Shown piece by piece: positions 3,900 to 36,754 of a stretch of DNA of 56,147 bases. Each line of letters begins with the position of its first letter. Within the stretch, counting starts at the first letter, position 1. The position numbers were made by a program, and so were the translations under genes. The DNA comes from a virus, in the IMG/VR virus record IMGVR_UViG_3300036760_000361, positions 1-56,147 of that record; one strand, written 5' to 3'. The notes under the pieces are model-generated. The model was not told the DNA's origin. It saw only the letters and a list, made by a program, of their open reading frames with translations, and did not search any database.

Positions 3900-4211
3900 A
3901 TGAAAGGTAAAATAAGCATAGTAACAGACAAAGGTAAAAGCACAATTACTTATTATATGGGCAATCAAATGGGAACTTCACTTAGTATATTACTAAGCGA
4001 GGTAGGGTGTCCGAGATTCTGGAGTAAGTATCCTACTCGGTACAATCCTGTAGGATATGATAGTGACATTAGGCTTAGCCATATTGTAGCAAACGCTCAC
4101 AAGTTAGGTCTACCTCCTACTGATTTATTGTATCGCATGATAGACTATCATCATACTGCAATAAAGACACATCAATATGATGTATCCGAGTGTAGCATAG
4201 AATTGGCATGA
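3900..4211 (+). CDS. 103-aa hypothetical early protein
   Basis: No family recognised. It contains a motif-like stretch CPRFWSKYPTRYNPVGYD in the middle and a His-rich tail segment (YHHTAIKTHQ). There is no signal or membrane segment. It has an AAGGAGA ribosome binding site and its stop overlaps the start of the SprT-like gene (ATGA), so the two are likely coupled. Confidence 0.65.
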   Translation: MKGKISIVTDKGKSTITYYMGNQMGTSLSILLSEVGCPRFWSKYPTRYNPVGYDSDIRLSHIVANAHKLGLPPTDLLYRMIDYHHTAIKTHQYDVSECSIELA

Positions 4212-4600
4212 AAAGCATTAATGACATAATGGAAGTAAAAAAGATAGCGGATACCCTGTTAGAGTATTATGGATATTCTAACAGGGTAAATGTTATATTA
4301 AGAAAAAGTTCTTGTTCATTCATTAAACCCCTTAAGAATGAGATTACTGTGAGCCTTGTTGATGCAAGTACTAATGAGCAGATAGCTATCCATGAGATAG
4401 CTCATCTGATTACATTCCTTAGACATGGATTTATTTATAAAAACAAGAAGCGAATATCTCACGGCAAAGAGTTTATGGCTACCTTACTCGAATTAATCAA
4501 TCTATGGTATAAGGATACTGATAGATATAACTGGTACTTAGAGTATCCTTGTTTGCAGGGGTGGTACAAGCAATACAAGCTACGAAAAGAAAAAATATGA
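4208..4600 (+). CDS. SprT-like zinc metalloprotease
   Basis: HEIAH at residues 62-66 supplies the HExxH zinc site. SHGKEF at 84-89 supplies a plausible third His ligand in the arrangement seen in SprT/Spartan-type proteases. At 130 aa it is a minimal catalytic domain without a DNA-binding tail. Known SprT-like enzymes cleave proteins, including DNA-crosslinked ones; the target here is unknown. It begins a run of coupled genes leading to the radical SAM, HhH-like and JAMM proteins. Confidence 0.7.
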   Translation: MKSINDIMEVKKIADTLLEYYGYSNRVNVILRKSSCSFIKPLKNEITVSLVDASTNEQIAIHEIAHLITFLRHGFIYKNKKRISHGKEFMATLLELINLWYKDTDRYNWYLEYPCLQGWYKQYKLRKEKI

Positions 4601-4636
4601 AAAAGATAAAAACTATAAGATTAAAGGAAAAACATA

Positions 4637-4807
4637 ATGAATAAAAGAAAAGACACAATAAATAAATTGTTTACCGCTATTCTTGCAAAAAAAGTAGTTT
4701 CATATTATGCAAGGATGCAATGTCCATCTTATAAAAACAAAACAATAGTAGACTGCATGTATTGTATAAACTATAGTATATGTAATCCCAAAAAATATCT
4801 ACCATGA
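4637..4807 (+). CDS. 56-aa Cys-rich small protein
   Basis: The gene is short but convincing: it has AAAGGA upstream and its stop overlaps the radical SAM start (ATGA at 4804-4807). Cysteines lie at about residues 29, 40, 43 and 49 (C-x10-C-x2-C-x5-C), suggesting metal binding. An accessory or substrate peptide of the following radical SAM enzyme is a speculative possibility because of the tight coupling. Confidence 0.6.
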   Translation: MNKRKDTINKLFTAILAKKVVSYYARMQCPSYKNKTIVDCMYCINYSICNPKKYLP

Positions 4808-5985
4808 AAAAGTTTTTATTTTGTCAATTCAGTAACAAACTCCTTAATCCTAAAAATGACAGTTTGTCTGATAGGTATTATAATGCTCTTTATGAGCATA
4901 AGGAGCAGGATGGCTATTATAGAGATAATAACTTCTTTGAATTGCCATTGTGGATAGCCGAGACATGCGGTTGTCTAACTGGTAATTTCAGAAAAGAGTT
5001 ATATATCATTACAGACATCAAACAAGCCATTAAGGACATTAGAGAAAAGTATGCCGATTACGTGCTTTTCTCTGTGTTAGACGTTAACAAGGAATATGTA
5101 GCCGAGATAGCAAGGCATTATTTAGGCAAGGCTAAAGTCTGTGTCGGTGGTTACATAGATTTTAGCTACTTCCACAATAAGAATATTCATATCTTCAATG
5201 GCATTAAGGATTTTATTGAGTACTTAGGCTTGAAGTATGAATATAACCTCGATTATAGTCTATTCTCTGCATATAAGACAATTCCCCGCTTAACACTAAG
5301 TAAAGGTTGCCTCAACCGCTGTAAATTTTGCACCGTAGAAAAAACCGTGACAGCTGTTAGTGAACTTGACATCTTAAAACAAATAGAAAGCTTTAGAGTG
5401 TTGCGGTTTAGGCTCATTTACCTTAATGATAAAACCTTTGGGCAAGCTCAAAATTTTACTATGTTATATGACTTATATAATATAGTAAAAGAATATAATC
5501 CTGATTTTTTGGGCTTTATAATTCAAACAACTTGCATGAATATTCTTGATAATAGTATACAAGAATTGCTTGAAAAAGGTATAATCTATGCTGTGGAGAT
5601 AGGTATAGAAACATTCAATGATAATTTACTCTATGCATTGAGTAAACCTCAAACAGAGCAAACAATAATTGATGCAATAGAAACTTTGAAAAAATATCAA
5701 GTAAGAATTATACCAAATATAATTATAGGTATACTCAATGAAAATGAATATACTTATGATAAAACCTTGAATTTTTTAAGGCATTATCAAAAGGATATTT
5801 ATTTATTGAATATCTATAACCTTGCTGTGTATGAAAATACAGAGCTATCACAAGAGATTATTAAGAACAGTGATAGCGATATTAATGAGAATATCACAGA
5901 TAAAAGTTTCTATTCTAAGTCTCAAAAAATAGCTAATGAAAAATTCTATAATGAAATATTTAAATTAGCTATGGAGATATTATGA
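4804..5985 (+). CDS. Radical SAM enzyme with N-terminal Rossmann-like domain
   Basis: The 393-aa protein has the cluster-binding motif C169-x3-C173-x2-C176 in the context LSKGCLNRCKFC. Typical downstream radical SAM elements follow: EIGIET near 265 and an Elp3/B12-type region with IIPNIIIG near 300. The first 150 residues resemble the cobalamin-binding-type domain that precedes many B12 radical SAM enzymes, but the DxHxxG cobalamin motif is not evident. It is not QueE, which is much shorter. The gene is coupled on both sides: ATGA with the 56-aa gene and ATGA with the HhH-like gene. Substrate unknown; modification of DNA, RNA or a peptide is possible. Confidence 0.8.
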   Translation: MKKFLFCQFSNKLLNPKNDSLSDRYYNALYEHKEQDGYYRDNNFFELPLWIAETCGCLTGNFRKELYIITDIKQAIKDIREKYADYVLFSVLDVNKEYVAEIARHYLGKAKVCVGGYIDFSYFHNKNIHIFNGIKDFIEYLGLKYEYNLDYSLFSAYKTIPRLTLSKGCLNRCKFCTVEKTVTAVSELDILKQIESFRVLRFRLIYLNDKTFGQAQNFTMLYDLYNIVKEYNPDFLGFIIQTTCMNILDNSIQELLEKGIIYAVEIGIETFNDNLLYALSKPQTEQTIIDAIETLKKYQVRIIPNIIIGILNENEYTYDKTLNFLRHYQKDIYLLNIYNLAVYENTELSQEIIKNSDSDINENITDKSFYSKSQKIANEKFYNEIFKLAMEIL

Positions 5986-6587
5986 AAAACATAGAAAAGT
6001 ATTTCTCCTTAGCTAATGACACAGAAGTAAAGAATGGATTAAGCTGGTATTCTAATAGCCATAACTGCATATCTGAAATTGCAGATAAATATGGCATAGA
6101 ACATGAGATAGCCTATGCTGTTACTTCTGCATTATCCCCTCGCTGTATATGGGAAACTAACCTGAAAGACTTAGAAAAAGTTTTAGAATGGCATACAAGT
6201 TTTAGTAAAAAATCATATTTACCTATAGTTACTACCTATGTACATAATTTGAAAAAGGCAATTAATACTTTACAGTCTAAGAACACTAACGTTTTTAAAA
6301 CCTGTAAAACTTTTAATTTTTTTAATAACTTGCTTAATCCTGAAAGCGGTGATTATGTTACCATTGATGGCCATTCTATAAATATTTATTATGGAAAAAC
6401 TGGCATGGTAAAACATAAACATTTTACAAAAAAATATTACAATAGAATAGCTATGGCTTATCGCAAGGTAGCCAAAAAATATAATATATTGCCGTGTCAA
6501 ATGCAAGCTATCACATGGCTTGCATTTAAACGTATCCACAATATAAGAGTTAACTGGAGATACTATCAAGGGGATTTACCGTTTTAG
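5982..6587 (+). CDS. HhH-glycosylase-like protein (DUF7178-like)
   Basis: The 201-aa protein carries SALSPRxxWExNL at about residues 49-61 and VTIDGHSINI at about 126-135. I associate this combination with an uncharacterised phage family (named DUF7178 from memory). The layout, an all-helical fold with a conserved Asp just before His in the second motif (D129, H131), resembles HhH-GPD DNA glycosylases and the thymine-pyrophosphorylase clades used in phage DNA hypermodification. That link is inference. It is translationally coupled to the radical SAM gene, so a joint role in nucleic acid modification is attractive. Confidence 0.6.
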   Translation: MKNIEKYFSLANDTEVKNGLSWYSNSHNCISEIADKYGIEHEIAYAVTSALSPRCIWETNLKDLEKVLEWHTSFSKKSYLPIVTTYVHNLKKAINTLQSKNTNVFKTCKTFNFFNNLLNPESGDYVTIDGHSINIYYGKTGMVKHKHFTKKYYNRIAMAYRKVAKKYNILPCQMQAITWLAFKRIHNIRVNWRYYQGDLPF

Positions 6588-6589
6588 CT

Positions 6590-7081
6590 ATGAATAAAGA
6601 ATTATTTAAACACCTATCCGATAAACATAACTTGAATGAGTCAGGATATTTTTATTCTAATGGCATACGGTTTTTGCGTGTCAAAGGTAACAATACTCAA
6701 ATTGAAATACTCGCATCTGAAAAGGAATTAATACAAAAGAAAAGTAAAATTGTATTTATACATAATCATCCTGTGGAAGATTGGAGTTTATCAGGATTAG
6801 ACATAAACGCTATGTTACAATTAAATATCAAAAGAATTATAGCAGTTAGCAATAAAAAAACATATATTTTAGAGCTAAAGGATGATATTAACGAAAAGGA
6901 AAAACAAGGTTTTTATGCAGAGCTAAGTAAGATTATGAATACTGCATTGAAAGTAACTAATAATTATGACAATACAAGGAATGATTTTATTGTTAGAGAA
7001 TTTGTAAAACTTAGTAATAAATTTGAATATTCTATTATAGAGAATGAAAAAGTAAATCCTGAAAGTCTAATAATGTTATGA
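6590..7081 (+). CDS. JAMM (JAB1/MPN) family metallopeptidase
   Basis: H58-x-H60-x7-S68-x2-D71 is an exact JAMM zinc motif, with a candidate catalytic Glu at residue 39 or 44. The domain occupies residues 1 to about 100; the C-terminal 60 residues are helical and charged. JAMM proteins remove ubiquitin-like tags or occur as RadC-type proteins; phage versions also serve as tail proteases, but this one is early and tail-less in context. It starts two bases after the HhH-like gene. Countering a ubiquitin-like conjugation defence (for example CBASS-type) is a testable idea only. Confidence 0.7.
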   Translation: MNKELFKHLSDKHNLNESGYFYSNGIRFLRVKGNNTQIEILASEKELIQKKSKIVFIHNHPVEDWSLSGLDINAMLQLNIKRIIAVSNKKTYILELKDDINEKEKQGFYAELSKIMNTALKVTNNYDNTRNDFIVREFVKLSNKFEYSIIENEKVNPESLIML

Positions 7082-7433: not shown

Positions 7434-7574
7434 ATGAAAAAGTGTAAAGTATGCAGTTGTAAAATTGAAGTAAGTGATAGTGAGATATGTAAGTCTTGTG
7501 AGGATTGGTATTTTATACTGTATTATAAGTATAAAATATATCCTTACATACTTGATTGGCATGAAACTTGCTAA
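7434..7574 (+). CDS. 46-aa zinc-ribbon microprotein
   Basis: CKVCSC at residues 4-9 and CKSC at 19-22 make a zinc knuckle pair; the tail is aromatic-rich. It has an AAAGGAAAGTGAG ribosome binding site. Its last codons overlap the second sigma-54-type site (7557-7572). Confidence 0.6.
   Translation: MKKCKVCSCKIEVSDSEICKSCEDWYFILYYKYKIYPYILDWHETC
7557..7572 (+). promoter_or_regulatory. Second sigma-54 consensus promoter
   Basis: TGGCATGAAACTTGCT again fits TGGCAYRNNNNTTGCW at every position and shares TGGCATG and ACTTGCT with the 3590 site. The predicted start near 7583 lies upstream of the ribosome binding site of the gene at 7607. Confidence 0.5.
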
Positions 7575-8160: not shown

Positions 8161-8802
8161 ATGTCAAAAAAGTATAGAATCAACAAGGATAGTAGAGTTA
8201 TGGCATTGAAGGATTTTGGTGATGTCAAAAAAGGAGATATTGGAGGATTTATAAAGCATGAAAGAAACTTATCACAGGTAGGCAAGGCGTGGATATACAA
8301 TAATGCATGGGTTTATGATGATGCAATGGTATGCGGAAACGCAAAAGTATATGGTGATGCATGGATATATGGCTATGCAACGCTATATGATAACGCAACA
8401 GTGTTTGATAAAGCAAGAGTATGTGGTAGTGCAAAGGTATATGGTGATGCAGGGATATATGGTAATGTAGCTATATACGGTAATGCATGTATTTACGATA
8501 ATGCAGAGATATATGGTCATGCAAAGATATGCGGTAATGCTAAAATATGTGGTAATGCGTGGATAGATAGCCATGCAACAGTACTCGGCGATACGTGGAA
8601 TACATCTCCATTATATATTCAAGGCTCTGTGTATAGTCTTACAAATTCAAAATATGGATATATTACTATAGGTTGTATCACATTATCTTTTGAAGATTGG
8701 AAAAAAGAAGGATTGAAAATAGCAAAGGAATATAATTTTACGGAAGAACAGATAGAGGAATATAAAGCATACATTGAATTATTTACCAAAATAGGAAAGT
8801 AA
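8161..8802 (+). CDS. Left-handed beta-helix (hexapeptide repeat) protein A
   Basis: After an N-terminal cap of about 40 residues (SKKYRINKDSRV and GGFIKHERNLS), residues about 43-145 are some 16 tandem hexads of the form A-x-(V/I)-Y-G-(N/D). This is the pattern of left-handed beta-helix folds found in hexapeptide acyltransferases. No catalytic His with transferase context is clear, so it may be a structural or binding helix. A C-terminal domain of about 60 residues follows (LSFEDWKKEGLKIAKEY). A shorter paralogue follows immediately. Confidence 0.8.
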   Translation: MSKKYRINKDSRVMALKDFGDVKKGDIGGFIKHERNLSQVGKAWIYNNAWVYDDAMVCGNAKVYGDAWIYGYATLYDNATVFDKARVCGSAKVYGDAGIYGNVAIYGNACIYDNAEIYGHAKICGNAKICGNAWIDSHATVLGDTWNTSPLYIQGSVYSLTNSKYGYITIGCITLSFEDWKKEGLKIAKEYNFTEEQIEEYKAYIELFTKIGK

Positions 8803-8814
8803 GGGAGGATTAGA

Positions 8815-9288
8815 ATGTCAAAAAAGTATGAAATAAACAAAGATGGTAGGGTTGTAGCAGTAAGAGACTTTGGTAATGTCAAGGAGGGGAATGTCGGAGG
8901 ATTTATTGAAAACGAAAAGAATTTATCTCACAATGGCGATTGTTGGGTATATGATAACGCAAGGGTATATGGTACTGCAAGGGTATCTGGTAATGCAAAA
9001 GTATACGGTAATGCATACGTATACGGTAATGCATACATTTATGATAATGCACTGGTCTATGGCGACACAAGGGTCTTTGGTACTGCAAGGGTATATGGTA
9101 ATGCAAGGGTGTCTGGTCATGCAGGGGTATATGGTGATGCAAAAGTATATGGTAGTGCGTGGATATATGATAAAGCACAACTAAGTGATAATGCAATAGC
9201 ACATGACCATGCACAGGTATACGGTCATGTAAGTCTGTCTGGTAATGTAACATTATGTGGAAAAGAAAGGATATTCGATTGTGATTAG
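8815..9288 (+). CDS. Left-handed beta-helix (hexapeptide repeat) protein B
   Basis: The N-terminal cap matches protein A closely (SKKYEINKDGRVVAV, DFGNV, GGFIENEKNLS). About 17 hexads such as ARVYGN and AKVYGD then run to the C-terminus. It lacks the C-terminal domain of protein A. The 12-bp gap carries AGGGAGG. The pair arose by tandem duplication with different repeat evolution. Role unknown; phage proteins of this type are usually only labelled hexapeptide or polymer-forming. Confidence 0.8.
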   Translation: MSKKYEINKDGRVVAVRDFGNVKEGNVGGFIENEKNLSHNGDCWVYDNARVYGTARVSGNAKVYGNAYVYGNAYIYDNALVYGDTRVFGTARVYGNARVSGHAGVYGDAKVYGSAWIYDKAQLSDNAIAHDHAQVYGHVSLSGNVTLCGKERIFDCD

Positions 9289-22770: not shown

Positions 22771-23271
22771 ATGAGAAATAATGAATGTAGATTAGAAAAT
22801 TGTGAGAAATGTCCAAGTTTAGGAAAAACACATCTTTATTTATCCCATCCAGTTTCCATACGACACATGATAAGGGAATTTGAGCTTTATATAGAAAAAC
22901 ATAGTAATATAGAATTATTCAATCCATTCTATGATGCTGATAGAAAGGAAATAAAAGCCATAGATGCAGGTGAAGATATTAATAAAATATATAAAAACCT
23001 CAACCCAACAAAAATAGTGGAAGATGATATTAGTTATATTAACAAATGTGATGGCATAATATCTTTTCTTGGTGATGGAGACGCAAAGTCATTCGGAACT
23101 ATTTGTGAGGTATGGTATGCATTTGAAAGGAAAAAACAAATTTTTATAATCACCCATTTCCTTCAAGAACACCCTTGGGTTAAATATATTACCAAAGGAA
23201 CTAATGGTAAAATATTTTCTTGCTGGGTTGATTTTATGAAATATGCAGTAAGTGGGAAAATAGACGAATGA
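22771..23271 (+). CDS. Nucleoside 2-deoxyribosyltransferase-like protein
   Basis: The order KTHLYLSHPVSIR (residues about 18-30), FNPFYDADRKE, IVEDDISYINKCDGIISFL and SFGTICEVWYAF matches the Rossmann-like deoxyribosyltransferase/DUF4406 fold, in which the late Glu is catalytic. A Cys-bearing N-terminus (CRLENCEKCP) is added. It may exchange bases between nucleosides, fitting with the dNTP pyrophosphohydrolase-like gene. Confidence 0.75.
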   Translation: MRNNECRLENCEKCPSLGKTHLYLSHPVSIRHMIREFELYIEKHSNIELFNPFYDADRKEIKAIDAGEDINKIYKNLNPTKIVEDDISYINKCDGIISFLGDGDAKSFGTICEVWYAFERKKQIFIITHFLQEHPWVKYITKGTNGKIFSCWVDFMKYAVSGKIDE

Positions 23272-23961: not shown

Positions 23962-24385
23962 AACATTAAGACAGATTTCCATAAAATGGTTAGATTTATT
24001 GTGGGGGAGAATAATACACAATCGAGACAAGGACACGTGTCAATGGTGCGGAAGGTCTTATGGTAAGGTGGATGCCCATCATATTCATGGTAGAGGGTTA
24101 TTTGTAAGATGGGATACCAGAAATGGAATTTTATTATGTTATCGTTGCCATCAGCATAGAATCCACACTGACCACGAAGGTCTTAGGAAGGTCTGTATTG
24201 AAAAAATAGGACAGAGGGTTTATGACCAATTATATTTTTTATCGCATAGGCCATATAGTAATGTAGATTTTGAACATTGGGAAAAACTATTGTTGGGTGA
24301 GATAAAAGATTTACATATTATCCCACCACCTAAACCAAAAAGACTAACCGAGCAACCTAAGTTACCACTAAGGAGTAAAAAATGA
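23942..24385 (+). CDS. HNH endonuclease
   Basis: CQWCGRSYGKVDAHHIHGRG (residues about 34-53) and ILLCYRCHQHRIH (near 67-79) carry the two Cys pairs and the HH motif of zinc-bound HNH nucleases. 147 aa, single-domain, with a Pro/Lys-rich tail. Similar phage proteins act near recombination or packaging; free-standing homing cannot be excluded. Confidence 0.8.
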   Translation: MKTRKVKTLRQISIKWLDLLWGRIIHNRDKDTCQWCGRSYGKVDAHHIHGRGLFVRWDTRNGILLCYRCHQHRIHTDHEGLRKVCIEKIGQRVYDQLYFLSHRPYSNVDFEHWEKLLLGEIKDLHIIPPPKPKRLTEQPKLPLRSKK

Positions 24386-24645
24386 AAGTAGTACATTGCA
24401 AAAAAGAACCATACGATATTTACATAGGAAGACCCAGTAAATGGGGAAATCCATTTTTAATAGGAAAGGACGGAAGTAGAGATGAAGTTATAGAAAAATA
24501 TAGAAAATATATTTTAAATAAACCAGAACTGATGGCGTCCTTACATGAACTAAGTGGAAAAACATTGGGTTGATGGTGCAAACCTCGTGCGTGTCATGGG
24601 GATATATTGATAGAATTAGTGGAAAATAAATCAGACAAAAAATAA
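24382..24645 (+). CDS. DUF4326 protein interrupted by UGA (candidate selenoprotein)
   Basis: The frame reads YIGRPSKWGNPFLIG, matching DUF4326, and stops at TGA (24571-24573) after SGKTLG. The same frame continues as WCKPRACHGDILIELVEN to TAA at 24643-24645, which is precisely the family's C-terminal motif (usually GCWCKPxxCHGDVL). The UGA therefore stands where the first Cys is expected. A seven-bp hairpin follows at the distance expected for a bacterial SECIS element. Alternatives are a nonsense mutation, programmed readthrough or a sequencing error. UGA is a normal stop in other genes here, so the genetic code is standard. Family function is unknown. Confidence 0.6.
24583..24601 (+). promoter_or_regulatory. 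SECIS-like hairpin downstream of in-frame UGA
   Basis: CCTCGTG (24583-24589) pairs with CATGGGG (24595-24601) using two G-U wobbles; the loop is CGTGT with G in second position. The loop G is 18 bases after the UGA. These match published bacterial SECIS search rules as I recall them (loop 16-37 bases away, G in the first two loop bases). Confidence 0.45.
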
Positions 24646-31444: not shown

Positions 31445-34400
31445 TTACCTCCCTTGATATTTTTTCATAAAGTCCTCATACTTCTTCCTTAATTCTGCCT
31501 GCCTTACTGGGGGTGCATGTTTTAATGCGTTCATGAATTTCTTCGGCATATATGGCAATAACATCTTTTGTTCTTCTGGAGTTCCGTCATCAAACATGTC
31601 AACAGCATCGTCAAATGGAATCTTAGAGAATCCAAGAATAGTAGGATTCTTTCTGGCATCCCTTAATATCTTAGCCTTATCCCATTGGGATATTTCTCCA
31701 GCAGCAATAGCATCTTCCAGCATTTGCATAGCTTCTGGTTTCTTTAATTCCAATGCTGTCTTTATATTTTTCTTGTTAGCAAGTCTTCCTAACTCAGTCA
31801 ATGTTCTTGCATCTTTGGGTGCATGTTCAGCAATAAATTTAGTAATATCCCTCTGAAGTTCAGTTTTATATTGATATGTAGTAAGACCCATTGAGGTAAA
31901 TGCTGAATCAAGTATATCCTTTTGAACATCTCCCTTTATAAACTGTAATGGAATTGGAATATGTGTTGTAAAGAAATCCTTAAATTGTTCATTAACATAT
32001 CTTTGCTGACCGAGTTCATTTCTTCCAGTTAGTGCTTCAATCATTGTTCTTGTAACTGTAGGGTTAAGCCTATGATATATAAAACTTCTTGGATTTTTAA
32101 CTAAATGAAATAAATCACCAGGGACAGACCTCAGCATATATTCTTTATCGCCCACAACAACAGATAATGGTCTTTCCCAATGAGGATTACTATCTTTATC
32201 TAAAATTGCAGTCATAATCTTAGCTATCAATATCATGCCCAAGGTTGCACGAAGTAAGGCTGCCCTTTGCTCATGACCGTATGGTGTGGCTGCCTGACCT
32301 ATGAATTTTGCTCTGGCTTCTAAAAAGTCAGGTGCTAATGCCATTAATCTCATAACATCCTGAAAGGTAGGGTTCCTACCTAACCATTTATAATTTATTT
32401 CACCAAATGCTGCTTGGGTTTGTTTTGCTGTAAACTCTGCTATTTGGTCTGGGGTATAATCTTTTTTATATCTTTCGAGATTTTCAGGGTATGCTCTTCT
32501 AAACATTGCTACTTTCATTTTTGGAATAAAATCACCAAATACATATTCATTATATTTACGCATATATTCACCAAGAATAGGAATCTTTGTTAAAACACCT
32601 GTGCTTACACAACCTTCTTCAAAGTATTCAAGATAATCACTTGCATTTGGATTAAGTCCATGTTCTATGCCCATTCTAACTATAGGGTCATTGGGGTCAA
32701 TTTCTGGAAGATTAAGTGGATTAACCTTATGGTATATTGCATGACTACCAGTATGAACCTGATGGAATGGTGATGCAGCTAAAAGTACACCCTTAAATTC
32801 CCTTACTGCTTTTAATGCTATCCTTCCAAATGGATTTTGTTTAATCTTAGAATATCCTGTCATATTTTTAAAATGCTTTGCTATGCTCTTATGAAGTAAT
32901 AAATCACCTTGCATAATCACTGGTCTGCCTTCTGGGTCAGATGTAAGCCAGAACCATTTTCTCATTGCTGGATGGTCATAACTTTCATATTCACCATAAT
33001 ATTCTTCTGGTAATGAATGGGGTTTAATTATAATAGCTTCTGGGTCTACCGAATCCCTTGGCACTAATTGACCTATTCCAGAAACAATAGCCAATGGCTT
33101 ACCATCTTCCGTTCTGGCTTCAATTAATTTTCTGAGTAACGTTCTGTTAGCTATGGTCTCAGCAAAAGACCTTTTATATTCTGTCATAGCCAAGATAGCA
33201 TCATCTTTATATCTTACCCCAGCCAATTCACCTTCCAATGTGGTATCAAACATTCTTCTTTTCAAGAAACCTGGATTGGTTCTGAATAATCCAGACCTCA
33301 ACATGGCATAAATCTTCTCAGCACCAGTATATCCTTTTTCTACCAATCTTCTTACGTAGTTTTCCTGCAAGGAATCTAACCAACCTAATTTCAATAAATA
33401 TTTCCCATCTTCTTCATAAGATTTTGCTAATGTTTCTTTTGCAAATTTAATAACATCAGCAGGTAATTTCTGAGCTAATTCATATTTCCATTTAACATCC
33501 TTCGGTGCAATTTTAGCAGCATCTCTAAGCAATGCCATATCACCATCAACTTCTATATATTTATTCATTGCTTCCCTGATTCTCTTGTCTGGTATTTTCC
33601 TTACAGCAGCCTCAGCAAATTTATTTACTTGGCTATCTGCTAAAAACTTTTCATAAGCGGTCTCACCAACTGCTTTTTTATATGAAGTCCACGGTTCTGG
33701 GTTCTTAATTCTATTAAGTAATGCAGAAAATGCTCCCTTAACACCAGCCACAGCTTGGCTTAACGCATCCTTTGACCTTTCTACTGTTTTAGCCATGTCA
33801 ATTCCTAAATCAACAAAATCCTTTGTTTTGATGTCTAATGTAGAAATACCTTCCAGTTTTTTAGTAAGGTCATCTATTTTTAAATCTCCAACTTTAGGCA
33901 TACTTAGAAACCCAGCCTCATTCCCTATGATTGGTATCTTACTATAAAATTCCTTTACCGCTTCAAAAACAGAAACCATGTGGTTTTTGATATTTTTATA
34001 AAAATCACCAAAGGCTTCTTTCATTCCTCTTACAAATTCAACAAACTTCTGTCCTACTTCATATATATCTTTTCCAAATTCTATTAATTTATTTTTTATC
34101 TCTGGTGTAACTTCTTTAACCTTATTATATGCTTCCTTAATGCCATCAACTGCCATCTCATACGAAGATTGCAATCCAAGAAAATCTACCACTACCTTCT
34201 TTGGCTTTTTTATGTGTCTTGTTAATACCTGTAATTCTTTTGCTCTATTTATTACTTCTTCATATCCCTCAAGACCCTTGTGTGCTTTAATTGAATTTCC
34301 ATATATAGTATATGCTTGTCCTTTGCTTATTATTCCATCTTTTACATTCTTATAGGTTTGATTTAATAATTGCAATGCATTAGAAACACCTTCTGGTGTT

Positions 34401-36754
34401 GGTGTCTTTGGGAAAATTCCACCTTCATAATCAGACAAGAACTTTCCTATATCTTTCATTACCATGTCTGAGTTTTTTATTGCATTAGGTTGTTCATCAA
34501 TTGGTATATTCAACTTAATCCAATCGGGTTGTCCAACATATATTTCCCTTATTAGTGTTCTAATTCCATCGGGACTACCACCAGCCATTAGGTCATCTTT
34601 TATTTTATTTACAAGGTTAGTATTTCCTTTTGTCAGTTCATTTCTAATATCTTCAGTTGTAAGATTTCCTATTTTTTCTGGAACCTTTGGTTTAGTTGAA
34701 GTTGCTGCTACTTCACCAAGAACATCCATATCTTGAAGATTTTGCTTGTCTATTTCATCTAATGCATAACGAACCAGTTTCTTCATAGCATCTGTATGCT
34801 CTGGGGTTCCAGGCTTAAATGTATTATTTATTCTTTCTGTTTCACTTTTAACCTTATCTCTTAATACAGCAGCCTCGTAATCTCTCCTTGTTTCTTCTGC
34901 CATATTTTCAGATGGAGCAACTGGAACACCAGCTTCAATTCTCTTAGCAGGTACTTCAGCTTCTTCTACGGTTGCGGGAGGTGGAGCTTTTTCATACCAT
35001 TTATTTCCAACATTTCTTTTAATACCAATTACCCTTGCTGCTGTGAGGTCTTCCCAATGCTGTGGTTGTTCTGGGATATTACTTGGAGCGTTTTCCTTGG
35101 GTGCATTTTCACCATACCATGCGCCACCTTCAGTCTCTGGTGGTGGAACATTCCCATACCACTCAGTCTTTGGTAAAACATATTCTGTGGGAGTAGCAGG
35201 AACTCCAGCTTCGGGTCTTACAGCAGGAACACCAGCCTTCCCTGTTACAGTAGGTGCTAAATCTTGCCATTCCCACGCTTTTCCAGGCTCTGGTGGGATA
35301 TTCTTTAAATATAAATCCTTATGCCATGTAGCACCCATTTCTTCGGCAGCTTGATTCCTCATAACCTCTGCATTATGCATAGCCTCAGATAATACGGTAT
35401 CAAACTCTTCCCAAGGAACAGGTTCTCCATTTTCAATAAAAGACCTTCCTACGTTATATACCAAATCTGCTATATATTTATTATCACCACCATAGGTTCT
35501 AATTTCATTTGTTACATTTAATAATTGTGCTAACCTTACTTCTTTTGCCACTGGACTTCCATCTGGAGTTGTTCCTTGTAGGGCTTCTATTGCTTTAGGA
35601 TTTTCTTTTATAGCATTGCGTAATGGAAATGGAAGTACGCCAGCCAATCCAAATGAAGCCATACCTATAATAGAGTTTTGTACCCTTTCTTGCCATGTAT
35701 TTGCTGGCTCTGTAGCACCAGCGCCACCACCCATAGCACTTAATTGTGCTATTTTAACAACCTTGGCAATAGTCTGTTCCTTTGGGGATAGTTCCTTACC
35801 ATCTTCAATCTTTTTAAAAATCTCACCAATAGGTCGTATCTTTGTGGCTAATCCTTCAAGCATACCTTCGGCAGTACCAAATACGCCAAATGCTGCTGCC
35901 ATCTTTCCTATATGCAACAATTTGCTTTGGTCTTCTGGTAGAAACGGTACACCTATACCACCATATAAACCACCAACTTCTGCTGCACCCAACCCCCTCG
36001 CAGCTATTGAGGCTATGGCTGGAGATAATCCAAATTTAGTGAACGTAGCAGGCGTAGCCATAAGTCCAACCTTGGTCAATCCCATTCCCAACGCCTTTCC
36101 TGTTAAACCTGCACCTAAAAGCCAAGCAATAGATGTTGATATACGTCTTATTGGAGTTGGTGCTGGAATTGCTTCACCTACAGGTGCAATGCCAGTAAGT
36201 GCATGTGTTAGTTCTGGAGATATTTCTATGATTAACTTAGAAACATCTGCTACTGGATTATAAATTTGCTGTGGTTCCGTTGCAGCCTTATTGACTGCAC
36301 CCAAGCCTTCTTGTTTTATTATAGCAGTACCTTGTTCTACATCTCTACCATATTGAGAAAGAGCATCGCTCCCAATATAATCCCCTATCCTTCTAAATGC
36401 ACTACCAGCCATATCTCCTATCTTGGTAACTAAGGATGGTGCTGGAACAATAGGTTCTTGCGGTACTGTAGTAGTTGGAGCCTTACCACTAAGCAATAAA
36501 TTTAATTCATCTGGGGTTGCTTTTCTCCAGTTAACTCCACCCTCTGGTAATGGTTGCTCTGTTGGCAATGTTGTTTGAGTAGCTTTTTGGGTATTAGGTA
36601 TACCCATAATACTATTTAGGTCTTCCTGTGTAGCCTTAACAAAAGTAGGAGCTTGTTCATTTTGTGTAGGATTTTGCTCCTGTGTCAATCCAGAAGTATC
36701 TTGTCCTTGTACCAATCCAGATAATTCGTCTTCTGTGGCTTTTCTATATTCCAT
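31445..36754 (-). CDS. 1769-aa giant virion/ejection protein
   Basis: The largest gene. The N-terminus carries three similar peptides with core KAT-x2-(D/E)L (near residues 5-10, 39-45, 77-83). A hydrophobic Gly/Ala region (about 200-300) could insert in a membrane. A Pro-rich repeat zone (about 500-620) has AGVPA and WYGxxxPPPE units. Coiled-coil-prone segments precede a long C-terminal domain with HTGSHAIYHK, FLEARAKFIGQAATPYG and a late FHLVKNPRSFIYHRLNPTVTR. Layout and position match internal virion (ejection) proteins of podoviruses, which form the DNA channel. No RNA polymerase motifs are seen. Confidence 0.7.
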   Translation of the reverse strand: MEYRKATEDELSGLVQGQDTSGLTQEQNPTQNEQAPTFVKATQEDLNSIMGIPNTQKATQTTLPTEQPLPEGGVNWRKATPDELNLLLSGKAPTTTVPQEPIVPAPSLVTKIGDMAGSAFRRIGDYIGSDALSQYGRDVEQGTAIIKQEGLGAVNKAATEPQQIYNPVADVSKLIIEISPELTHALTGIAPVGEAIPAPTPIRRISTSIAWLLGAGLTGKALGMGLTKVGLMATPATFTKFGLSPAIASIAARGLGAAEVGGLYGGIGVPFLPEDQSKLLHIGKMAAAFGVFGTAEGMLEGLATKIRPIGEIFKKIEDGKELSPKEQTIAKVVKIAQLSAMGGGAGATEPANTWQERVQNSIIGMASFGLAGVLPFPLRNAIKENPKAIEALQGTTPDGSPVAKEVRLAQLLNVTNEIRTYGGDNKYIADLVYNVGRSFIENGEPVPWEEFDTVLSEAMHNAEVMRNQAAEEMGATWHKDLYLKNIPPEPGKAWEWQDLAPTVTGKAGVPAVRPEAGVPATPTEYVLPKTEWYGNVPPPETEGGAWYGENAPKENAPSNIPEQPQHWEDLTAARVIGIKRNVGNKWYEKAPPPATVEEAEVPAKRIEAGVPVAPSENMAEETRRDYEAAVLRDKVKSETERINNTFKPGTPEHTDAMKKLVRYALDEIDKQNLQDMDVLGEVAATSTKPKVPEKIGNLTTEDIRNELTKGNTNLVNKIKDDLMAGGSPDGIRTLIREIYVGQPDWIKLNIPIDEQPNAIKNSDMVMKDIGKFLSDYEGGIFPKTPTPEGVSNALQLLNQTYKNVKDGIISKGQAYTIYGNSIKAHKGLEGYEEVINRAKELQVLTRHIKKPKKVVVDFLGLQSSYEMAVDGIKEAYNKVKEVTPEIKNKLIEFGKDIYEVGQKFVEFVRGMKEAFGDFYKNIKNHMVSVFEAVKEFYSKIPIIGNEAGFLSMPKVGDLKIDDLTKKLEGISTLDIKTKDFVDLGIDMAKTVERSKDALSQAVAGVKGAFSALLNRIKNPEPWTSYKKAVGETAYEKFLADSQVNKFAEAAVRKIPDKRIREAMNKYIEVDGDMALLRDAAKIAPKDVKWKYELAQKLPADVIKFAKETLAKSYEEDGKYLLKLGWLDSLQENYVRRLVEKGYTGAEKIYAMLRSGLFRTNPGFLKRRMFDTTLEGELAGVRYKDDAILAMTEYKRSFAETIANRTLLRKLIEARTEDGKPLAIVSGIGQLVPRDSVDPEAIIIKPHSLPEEYYGEYESYDHPAMRKWFWLTSDPEGRPVIMQGDLLLHKSIAKHFKNMTGYSKIKQNPFGRIALKAVREFKGVLLAASPFHQVHTGSHAIYHKVNPLNLPEIDPNDPIVRMGIEHGLNPNASDYLEYFEEGCVSTGVLTKIPILGEYMRKYNEYVFGDFIPKMKVAMFRRAYPENLERYKKDYTPDQIAEFTAKQTQAAFGEINYKWLGRNPTFQDVMRLMALAPDFLEARAKFIGQAATPYGHEQRAALLRATLGMILIAKIMTAILDKDSNPHWERPLSVVVGDKEYMLRSVPGDLFHLVKNPRSFIYHRLNPTVTRTMIEALTGRNELGQQRYVNEQFKDFFTTHIPIPLQFIKGDVQKDILDSAFTSMGLTTYQYKTELQRDITKFIAEHAPKDARTLTELGRLANKKNIKTALELKKPEAMQMLEDAIAAGEISQWDKAKILRDARKNPTILGFSKIPFDDAVDMFDDGTPEEQKMLLPYMPKKFMNALKHAPPVRQAELRKKYEDFMKKYQGR

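What the first reader, a model, noticed from the sequence alone, without database searches (positions are those of the whole stretch)
4208..7081. Coupled SprT / Cys-peptide / radical SAM / HhH-like / JAMM cluster
Five genes overlap by a few bases or lie within 36 bp: a HExxH protease, a 56-aa Cys-rich peptide, a radical SAM enzyme (C169, C173, C176), an HhH-glycosylase-like protein and an exact JAMM peptidase (H58, H60, S68, D71). Radical SAM plus glycosylase-like folds recall phage DNA hypermodification, while SprT and JAMM point to protein removal. The set could make or edit a nucleic acid modification, or mature a modified peptide (the 56-aa protein), or counter a ubiquitin-like defence.
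Basis: partly seen in the sequence, partly recalled or inferred. Interest (0 to 1): 0.75.

Follow-up and report, generated by a model that had tools for sequence, protein, structure and literature searches.

The report
Phage protease, radical-SAM, DNA-glycosylase enzyme set
A phage carries side by side a protease, a radical-chemistry enzyme and a probable DNA base-removing enzyme, and because other phages fuse the same parts into giant virion-region proteins they probably work together on DNA entering or replicating in the cell, possibly as a repair kit.

Summary
All five genes and motifs are real. Tight packing means nothing: 50 of 58 early junctions are <=36 bp. What matters is domain fusion elsewhere. 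The radical SAM protein belongs to a phage-restricted family (35-43% identity over its length) otherwise found in giant 'polyvalent' phage proteins. In two such giants it shares a polypeptide with DUF7178, the 201-aa family; in another it directly follows a SprT domain, the window's order. One contig keeps SprT and DUF7178 as separate genes and the radical SAM in a giant. So SprT, radical SAM and DUF7178 look like a reshuffled three-part set. The JAMM and 56-aa proteins have no such support. DUF7178 folds like OGG/EndoIII DNA glycosylases (Z 12.3; pLDDT 89.5), with Lys109, Asp129, Gln175 and Trp179 invariant in 76-77 diverse members. Best reading: an early, perhaps sometimes virion-delivered, DNA-lesion-processing kit (glycosylase/AP lyase, crosslink protease, radical enzyme of unknown substrate). 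Fold and linkage are well supported; purpose is inferred. DNA hypermodification is not excluded; peptide maturation and ubiquitin counter-defence have no support.

The parts
4208..4600 (+). SprT-like (HExxH) putative metalloprotease, 130 aa; part of the proposed three-part set
   Evidence: HEIAH; PF10263 E 2.3e-4, below cut-off. A SprT domain above cut-off directly precedes the homologous radical SAM domain in one polypeptide in L229/L235 contigs (28.4 bits). A stand-alone SprT-like relative lies 1.4 kb from DUF7178 in G810 (E 2e-4 to the window protein).
4637..4807 (+). 56-aa four-Cys small protein, probably a metal-binding phage microprotein; not shown to belong to the set
   Evidence: No family match; no counterpart detected in giants or relatives.
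4804..5985 (+). Radical SAM enzyme with N-terminal Rossmann-like domain, 393 aa; member of a phage 'polyvalent-protein' radical SAM family
   Evidence: PF04055 5.8e-13; 35-43% identity to 10 giant-protein domains, phmmer E down to 1e-83; AF2 pLDDT 91.1; best folds AprD4 Z 22.8, MgmA 22.5, CysS 21.2, RimO 20.5, MiaB 20.4.
5982..6587 (+). DUF7178 protein, 201 aa: predicted HhH-GPD DNA glycosylase/AP lyase (Lys109, Asp129; Gln175-x3-Trp179)
   Evidence: PF23802 1.8e-38; AF2 pLDDT 89.5; MjaOgg Z 12.3, SsOgg 12.2, EndoIII 9.8, hOGG1 8.5; K109, D129, Q175 and W179 invariant in 76-77 non-redundant members.
6590..7081 (+). JAMM/JAB-motif protein, 163 aa; in the same tight gene run, link to the set not shown
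   Evidence: HNHPVEDWSLSGLD motif; PF04002 RadC only 15.3 bits; no relatives in viral contigs or phages; no JAMM motif in any radical SAM giant or its contig stretch.
7568..7870 (+). 100-aa early protein whose homologues sit near DUF7178 in two radical-SAM-family contigs
   Evidence: E 2e-10 (G814) and 2e-5 (G810), each about 0.7-1.3 kb from the DUF7178 gene on the same strand.

Best explanation
Three of the five genes (SprT, radical SAM, DUF7178) are a modular enzyme set that phages keep as separate early genes, as here, or as domains of giant proteins of the virion gene region. Shown: identities of the three domains, the fusions and the co-occurrence. Inferred: DUF7178 is an HhH-GPD DNA glycosylase with AP-lyase chemistry, in which Lys109 attacks the sugar carbon of a flipped-out nucleotide, Asp129 assists, and Gln175/Trp179 hold the base as Gln315/Phe319 do in OGG1. 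SprT cleaves proteins that are crosslinked to, or stalled on, the DNA (including at abasic sites). The radical SAM enzyme performs a further radical reaction on a nucleic acid or protein substrate that cannot yet be named. Together they most likely clean or process phage DNA at entry or early replication.
For: Radical SAM + DUF7178 in one polypeptide (L237 and four identical contigs, and L251 at 69% identity). SprT followed by radical SAM in one polypeptide (L229/L235). SprT and DUF7178 as separate nearby genes with the radical SAM in a giant in G810. DUF7178 in 5 of 11 radical-SAM-family contigs (one of the five below cut-off) against 1 of 21 control contigs (Fisher p 0.011). SprT-DUF7178 neighbours also in a group of mycobacteriophages and in L249, the only control contig with either family. 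OGG/EndoIII fold and invariant K/D/Q/W. Reported role of SPRTN-type proteases in DNA-protein crosslink repair (PMC5128726). The L237 giant lies near a major head protein of the same PHROG as the window phage's.
Against: No activity shown. Sequence-profile comparison of DUF7178 with OGG2 is not significant (probability 0.1) and Foldseek E-values are weak (0.29). DUF7178 and SprT occur without radical SAM in many phages, so the set is not obligate. When contig length is taken into account the contig-level enrichment is not significant (p 0.13-0.34) and falls to 0.02-0.07 after dereplication, so the case rests mainly on the fusions, which come from few lineages. SprT-like proteases of jumbo phages have instead been proposed to cut host proteins (PMC7824862), and zincins in polyvalent proteins to auto-process them (PMC5512222).
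Confidence: 0.42

Rival explanations
1. Host-directed effector set. As proposed for polyvalent proteins in general, the enzymes are delivered early to disable or remodel the host: SprT cuts a host protein, the radical SAM enzyme (fold of RimO/MiaB/MgmA-type enzymes) modifies a host protein or tRNA, and DUF7178 nicks host or modified DNA.
For: Homologous domains sit in giants with ART-PolyVal, LPD23, LPD38 and GNAT domains, the hallmark of proteins thought to be injected for biological conflict (PMC5512222). The fold neighbours include enzymes that modify tRNA and proteins.
Against: In the window the three are separate genes in the early replication region beside primase, SSB and helicase genes, and stand-alone DUF7178 is a common early gene of small lytic phages near ThyX and primase.
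Confidence: 0.25
2. DNA hypermodification: the radical SAM enzyme installs or matures a base modification and the glycosylase-like protein exchanges or edits bases.
For: Radical SAM and glycosylase-fold proteins side by side; the window also has MazG-like and nucleoside deoxyribosyltransferase-like genes.
Against: No thymidylate-synthase-like hydroxymethylase, hmdU kinase or other known hypermodification gene among the larger early proteins scanned. DUF7178 keeps the Lys/Asp pair of lyase-type glycosylases. DUF7178 occurs alone in many small phages.
Confidence: 0.15
3. No functional unit: five unrelated accessory genes that happen to lie together in a compact early region.
For: 50 of 58 junctions are as tight. 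The structural relative G003 gives no match to the radical SAM or DUF7178 proteins. The JAMM and 56-aa genes have no linked relatives.
Against: Independent fusions of radical SAM with DUF7178 and of SprT with radical SAM, and the mixed arrangement in G810. This reading may well be right for the JAMM and 56-aa genes.
Confidence: 0.15
4. Peptide maturation: the radical SAM enzyme modifies the 56-aa Cys-rich peptide, with SprT or JAMM as leader protease.
For: The 56-aa gene overlaps the radical SAM gene by 4 bp.
Against: No peptide counterpart was detected in the giants that carry the radical SAM domain. RiPP-type models match the radical SAM only weakly, none reaching its curated cut-off.
Confidence: 0.03

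Closest known systems
HhH-GPD DNA glycosylases (OGG2, e.g. MjaOgg/SsOgg; OGG1; endonuclease III)
   Same: Fold over residues 2-185 (Z 12.3 to 8.5). Invariant Lys and Asp 20 residues apart (K249/D268 in hOGG1, 19 apart). C-terminal helix Gln-Ala-x-x-aromatic like OGG1 Gln315-Ala-Val-Leu-Phe319; the end of the structural alignment (185 to 325) keeps the same offset of 140 as Q175/Q315, W179/F319 and K109/K249.
   Different: No significant sequence-profile match; Foldseek E-value weak; single small domain; no known substrate; family seen only in viral sequences in these searches.
Polyvalent proteins of phages (Iyer et al. 2017, PMC5512222)
   Same: Homologous radical SAM, SprT and DUF7178 domains occur as modules of giants with ART-PolyVal, LPD23 or LPD38 domains.
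   Different: In the window the parts are separate early genes. The paper's main text mentions neither radical SAM, SprT nor glycosylase domains.
B12-fold / methylthiotransferase-type radical SAM enzymes (AprD4, MgmA, CysS, RimO, MiaB)
   Same: Rossmann-like N-terminal domain plus radical SAM barrel over the whole chain (Z 20-23).
   Different: No DxHxxG cobalamin motif and no conserved extra Cys; none of the NCBIfam models shown reaches its curated cut-off.
SprT/SPRTN proteases
   Same: HExxH and a weak PF10263 match; fused or neighbouring relatives reach the curated cut-off.
   Different: The window protein itself is below the cut-off; no substrate known.

Membership tests
HhH-GPD DNA glycosylase superfamily (DUF7178 protein) | Helical HhH-GPD fold | tested here: met
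   AF2 pLDDT 89.5; the top rows are OGG2, EndoIII, Mag, AGOG and OGG1 structures, Z 12.3-8.0. Caution: Foldseek E-value 0.29.
HhH-GPD DNA glycosylase superfamily (DUF7178 protein) | Catalytic Asp, and Lys for lyase-type enzymes, after the hairpin | tested here: met
   K109 and D129 invariant in 77 of 77 members with under 80% identity. Spacing and offset match OGG1 K249/D268. Three-dimensional superposition of these residues was not measured.
HhH-GPD DNA glycosylase superfamily (DUF7178 protein) | Base excision / AP-lyase activity | not testable with these tools
   Needs biochemistry.
OGG2 (archaeal 8-oxoguanine glycosylase) family | Sequence-profile homology to OGG2 | tested here: not met
   hhalign A4 against A5: probability 0.1, E 0.54. 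Hence not filed as OGG2.
aGPT-PPlase (hypermodification pyrophosphorylase) family | Match to its profile | tested here: inconclusive
   No such Pfam match for any of 23 DUF7178 members at E<=1; that those models are in this Pfam copy was not checked.
Radical SAM superfamily | CX3CX2C cluster motif and radical SAM barrel | tested here: met
   C169/C173/C176 invariant in A7; PF04055 over cut-off; structure matches over 1-393.
Cobalamin-dependent radical SAM methyltransferases | DxHxxG cobalamin motif | tested here: not met
   Absent in all 11 members; some members are fragments, and some B12 enzymes lack this motif.
MiaB/RimO methylthiotransferases | Three conserved N-terminal Cys for a second cluster | tested here: not met
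   Only the radical SAM Cys are conserved in A7; TIGR00089 28.6 bits against a cut-off of 251.
SprT-like family PF10263 | Profile score over the curated cut-off, with HExxH | tested here: inconclusive
   HEIAH present but 21.4 against 25.6 bits; fused relatives reach 28.4.
RadC/JAB (JAMM) family PF04002 | Profile score over the cut-off, with HxHP..S..D | tested here: inconclusive
   Motif met; 15.3 against 22.1 bits; equally weak, non-significant resemblance to RPN11.
Polyvalent proteins (window genes) | Several disparate enzyme domains in one polypeptide | tested here: not met
   Here the parts are separate genes; met for the giants L237, L229, L231 and L239.

The most novel reading that the evidence does not exclude
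A previously undescribed radical SAM family confined to phages works with an OGG-like glycosylase/lyase (DUF7178) and a SprT protease as a DNA-repair or DNA-editing kit that some phages package in the virion and inject, and others, like this one, express as early genes.
Probability: 0.3. Interest if true: 0.8.

Novelty: new variant of a known kind. Interest (0 to 1): 0.6.

Why it matters
DUF7178 is a widespread phage family of unknown function (at least 585 IMG/VR stretches). A specific, testable enzyme assignment (Lys109/Asp129 glycosylase-lyase) would annotate it across cyanophages, roseophages, mycobacteriophages and gut phages. A radical SAM enzyme that lives inside giant phage proteins, fused to a glycosylase fold and a SprT protease, points to radical chemistry on DNA or host targets at the start of infection and to a possible virion-carried DNA-repair kit.

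Tried and rejected
Single-protein scans with the window radical SAM (viral and genome contigs, phages), JAMM and SprT proteins found nothing; only a degenerate KGCxxxCxFCT pattern found the family. A first motif screen of about 90 DUF7178 neighbourhoods showed no radical SAM or JAMM neighbours and almost led to 'no conserved neighbourhood'. QMQAITW matches in bacterial genomes were all chance: none encodes DUF7178. About 800 chromosomes of two phyla lacked the radical SAM family at E<=1e-30, but only up to four candidates per genome were scored. The DUF7178 profile against the PDB gave only chance matches and OGG2 profile comparison failed. The LoVEphage radical SAM (L100) and a gut-phage one (L101) are only remote relatives. 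The aGPT-PPlase and RiPP readings were considered and not supported. A JAMM-like hit in L253 belongs to an unrelated contig. Contig-level enrichment was tested and is fragile after length correction.
Full report
What is there. They lie in the early, leftward-located + strand region of a 56-kb virus record of podovirus-like gene content, whose structural genes run on the - strand (terminase, portal/adaptor, major head protein). The early region carries a DnaG-type primase, SSB, MazG, a replication initiator, a DnaB-like helicase and an Mre11-like exonuclease. Tight spacing cannot be used as evidence for a unit: 50 of 58 junctions there are <=36 bp.

The 201-aa protein. It is a clear DUF7178 member (PF23802, 1.8e-38; phrog_3842, 1.6e-42), a family of unknown function found in 44 phage records and at least 585 IMG/VR stretches. 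None of 23 bacterial and archaeal genome contigs matching a diagnostic peptide encodes it. With 23 diverse viral homologues AlphaFold2 gives an all-helical model with pLDDT 89.5. The best structural matches are 8-oxoguanine glycosylases/lyases of the OGG2 type (MjaOgg Z 12.3, 174 residues, 3.8 A; SsOgg 12.2; TmOgg 11.6), then endonuclease III (9.8), Mag2, AGOG and human OGG1 (8.5). Foldseek E-values alone are weak (0.29) and a profile comparison with OGG2 sequences is not significant, so homology rests on fold plus active site. Lys109 and Asp129 are invariant in 77 of 77 members sharing under 80% identity; Gln175 and Trp179 in 76 of 76. In human OGG1 the catalytic pair is K249/D268 (both conserved with EndoIII) and Q315/F319 contact the flipped base (established knowledge). 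The structural alignment ends at model 185 = OGG1 325, an offset of 140, which also pairs K109 with K249, Q175 with Q315 and W179 with F319; D129/D268 is one residue off. The DUF7178 domains in giants and distant contigs keep K, D, Q and W (GHKVRNFY/TIDTHA/QSPVW in L237; SGPKVTRFY/TLDTW/LQAIVW in G810).

The radical SAM protein. Close relatives were not found by ordinary searches. A degenerate DNA pattern for KGCxxxCxFCT found about 15 viral loci whose giant ORFs (721-4319 aa, several cut by the locus) contain a domain aligned with essentially the whole window protein (phmmer E 1e-49 to 1e-83; 35-43% identity). Its signature includes KGCxHKCAFCT and LNDKTFGQA. Several giants carry ART-PolyVal, LPD23 or LPD38 domains, so they are polyvalent proteins in the sense of Iyer et al. 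(PMC5512222), whose main text mentions neither radical SAM nor glycosylase domains. The AlphaFold2 model (pLDDT 91.1) resembles AprD4, MgmA, CysS, RimO and MiaB over the whole chain (Z 20-23). There is no DxHxxG cobalamin motif and no conserved second Cys set, and none of the NCBIfam models shown reaches its cut-off. The chemistry is therefore open.

Linkage. (a) L237 and four contigs with an identical giant, and L251 (69% identical), hold radical SAM and DUF7178 in one polypeptide, in the window's order. (b) L229/L235 hold SprT directly before radical SAM in one polypeptide, again the window's order (28.4 bits against a 25.6 cut-off). The L235 genome also has a stand-alone DUF7178 gene. (c) G810 has SprT-like and DUF7178 genes 1.4 kb apart on one strand, a homologue of the window gene at 7568 between them, and the radical SAM in a 1724-aa giant. 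(d) A SprT gene lies 1-2 kb from DUF7178 in a group of mycobacteriophages, and L249, the only control contig with DUF7178, is also the only control contig with SprT. DUF7178 is in 5 of 11 radical-SAM-family contigs (one of these below the cut-off) against 1 of 21 controls (Fisher p 0.011). Dereplicated p is 0.02-0.07, and conditioning on contig length removes significance (0.13-0.34). About 190 DUF7178 loci in all show SprT nearby in only 7, so the set is recurrent but not obligate. The L237 giant lies near a major head protein of the same PHROG (phrog_1357) as the window phage's own, and the window has its own 1769-aa protein among the structural genes that shares a domain with the radical-SAM giant L213 (E 1e-11). 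A plausible history is that parts moved between virion-region giant and early operon; direction is unknown.

JAMM and 56-aa proteins. The JAMM motif is far beyond chance, but no relative and no linked copy was found, and RadC-like against RPN11-like cannot be decided. Iyer et al. argue that RadC-type JAB domains of mobile elements act on nucleic acids rather than on ubiquitin. The 56-aa protein has four Cys and no family. Neither is claimed as part of the set.

Function. Shown: identities, fold, invariance, fusions. Inferred: glycosylase/AP-lyase activity; crosslink proteolysis by SprT (SPRTN precedent, PMC5128726); delivery with the virion for giants; a joint DNA-processing role. I favour lesion processing at DNA entry or early replication (0.42), over host-directed effectors (0.25), hypermodification (0.15), no unit (0.15) and peptide maturation (0.03).

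Noticed in passing
window 31445-36754 (-): 1769-aa protein among the structural genes, no Pfam match, shares a 250-aa region with the radical-SAM giant of L213 (E 1e-11); probably this phage's own polyvalent/internal virion protein.
   Followed up: partly
window 22771-23271 (+): 166-aa nucleoside 2-deoxyribosyltransferase-like protein (PF05014 E 3e-4, below cut-off).
   Followed up: no
window 24382-24573 (+): 63-aa DUF4326 protein (E 1.4e-17).
   Followed up: no
window 8161-8802 and 8815-9288 (+): Two neighbouring YdcK-type beta-solenoid repeat proteins, apparently a tandem duplication.
   Followed up: no
L161 590-4774, L176 2827-4638, L144 8419-9342, L107 4150-5274: DUF7178 also occurs inside larger proteins of 307-1394 aa without radical SAM (also phrog_2878).
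   Followed up: partly
L237 1796-2791 and 6603-13082: Giant with GNAT-like, radical SAM and DUF7178 domains lies downstream of a phrog_1357 major head protein, the same head-protein family as in the window.
   Followed up: partly
PP885686.1 gp111 (L011 3953-4549): A DUF7178 protein is annotated as 'portal protein' in Tunturiibacter phage Tunturi_3, probably a misannotation.
   Followed up: no
L016-L018 (G003, IMGVR_UViG_3300028398_000001): Relative with 54% identical head protein shares only the structural genes with the window; its early region is unrelated by protein comparison.
   Followed up: yes
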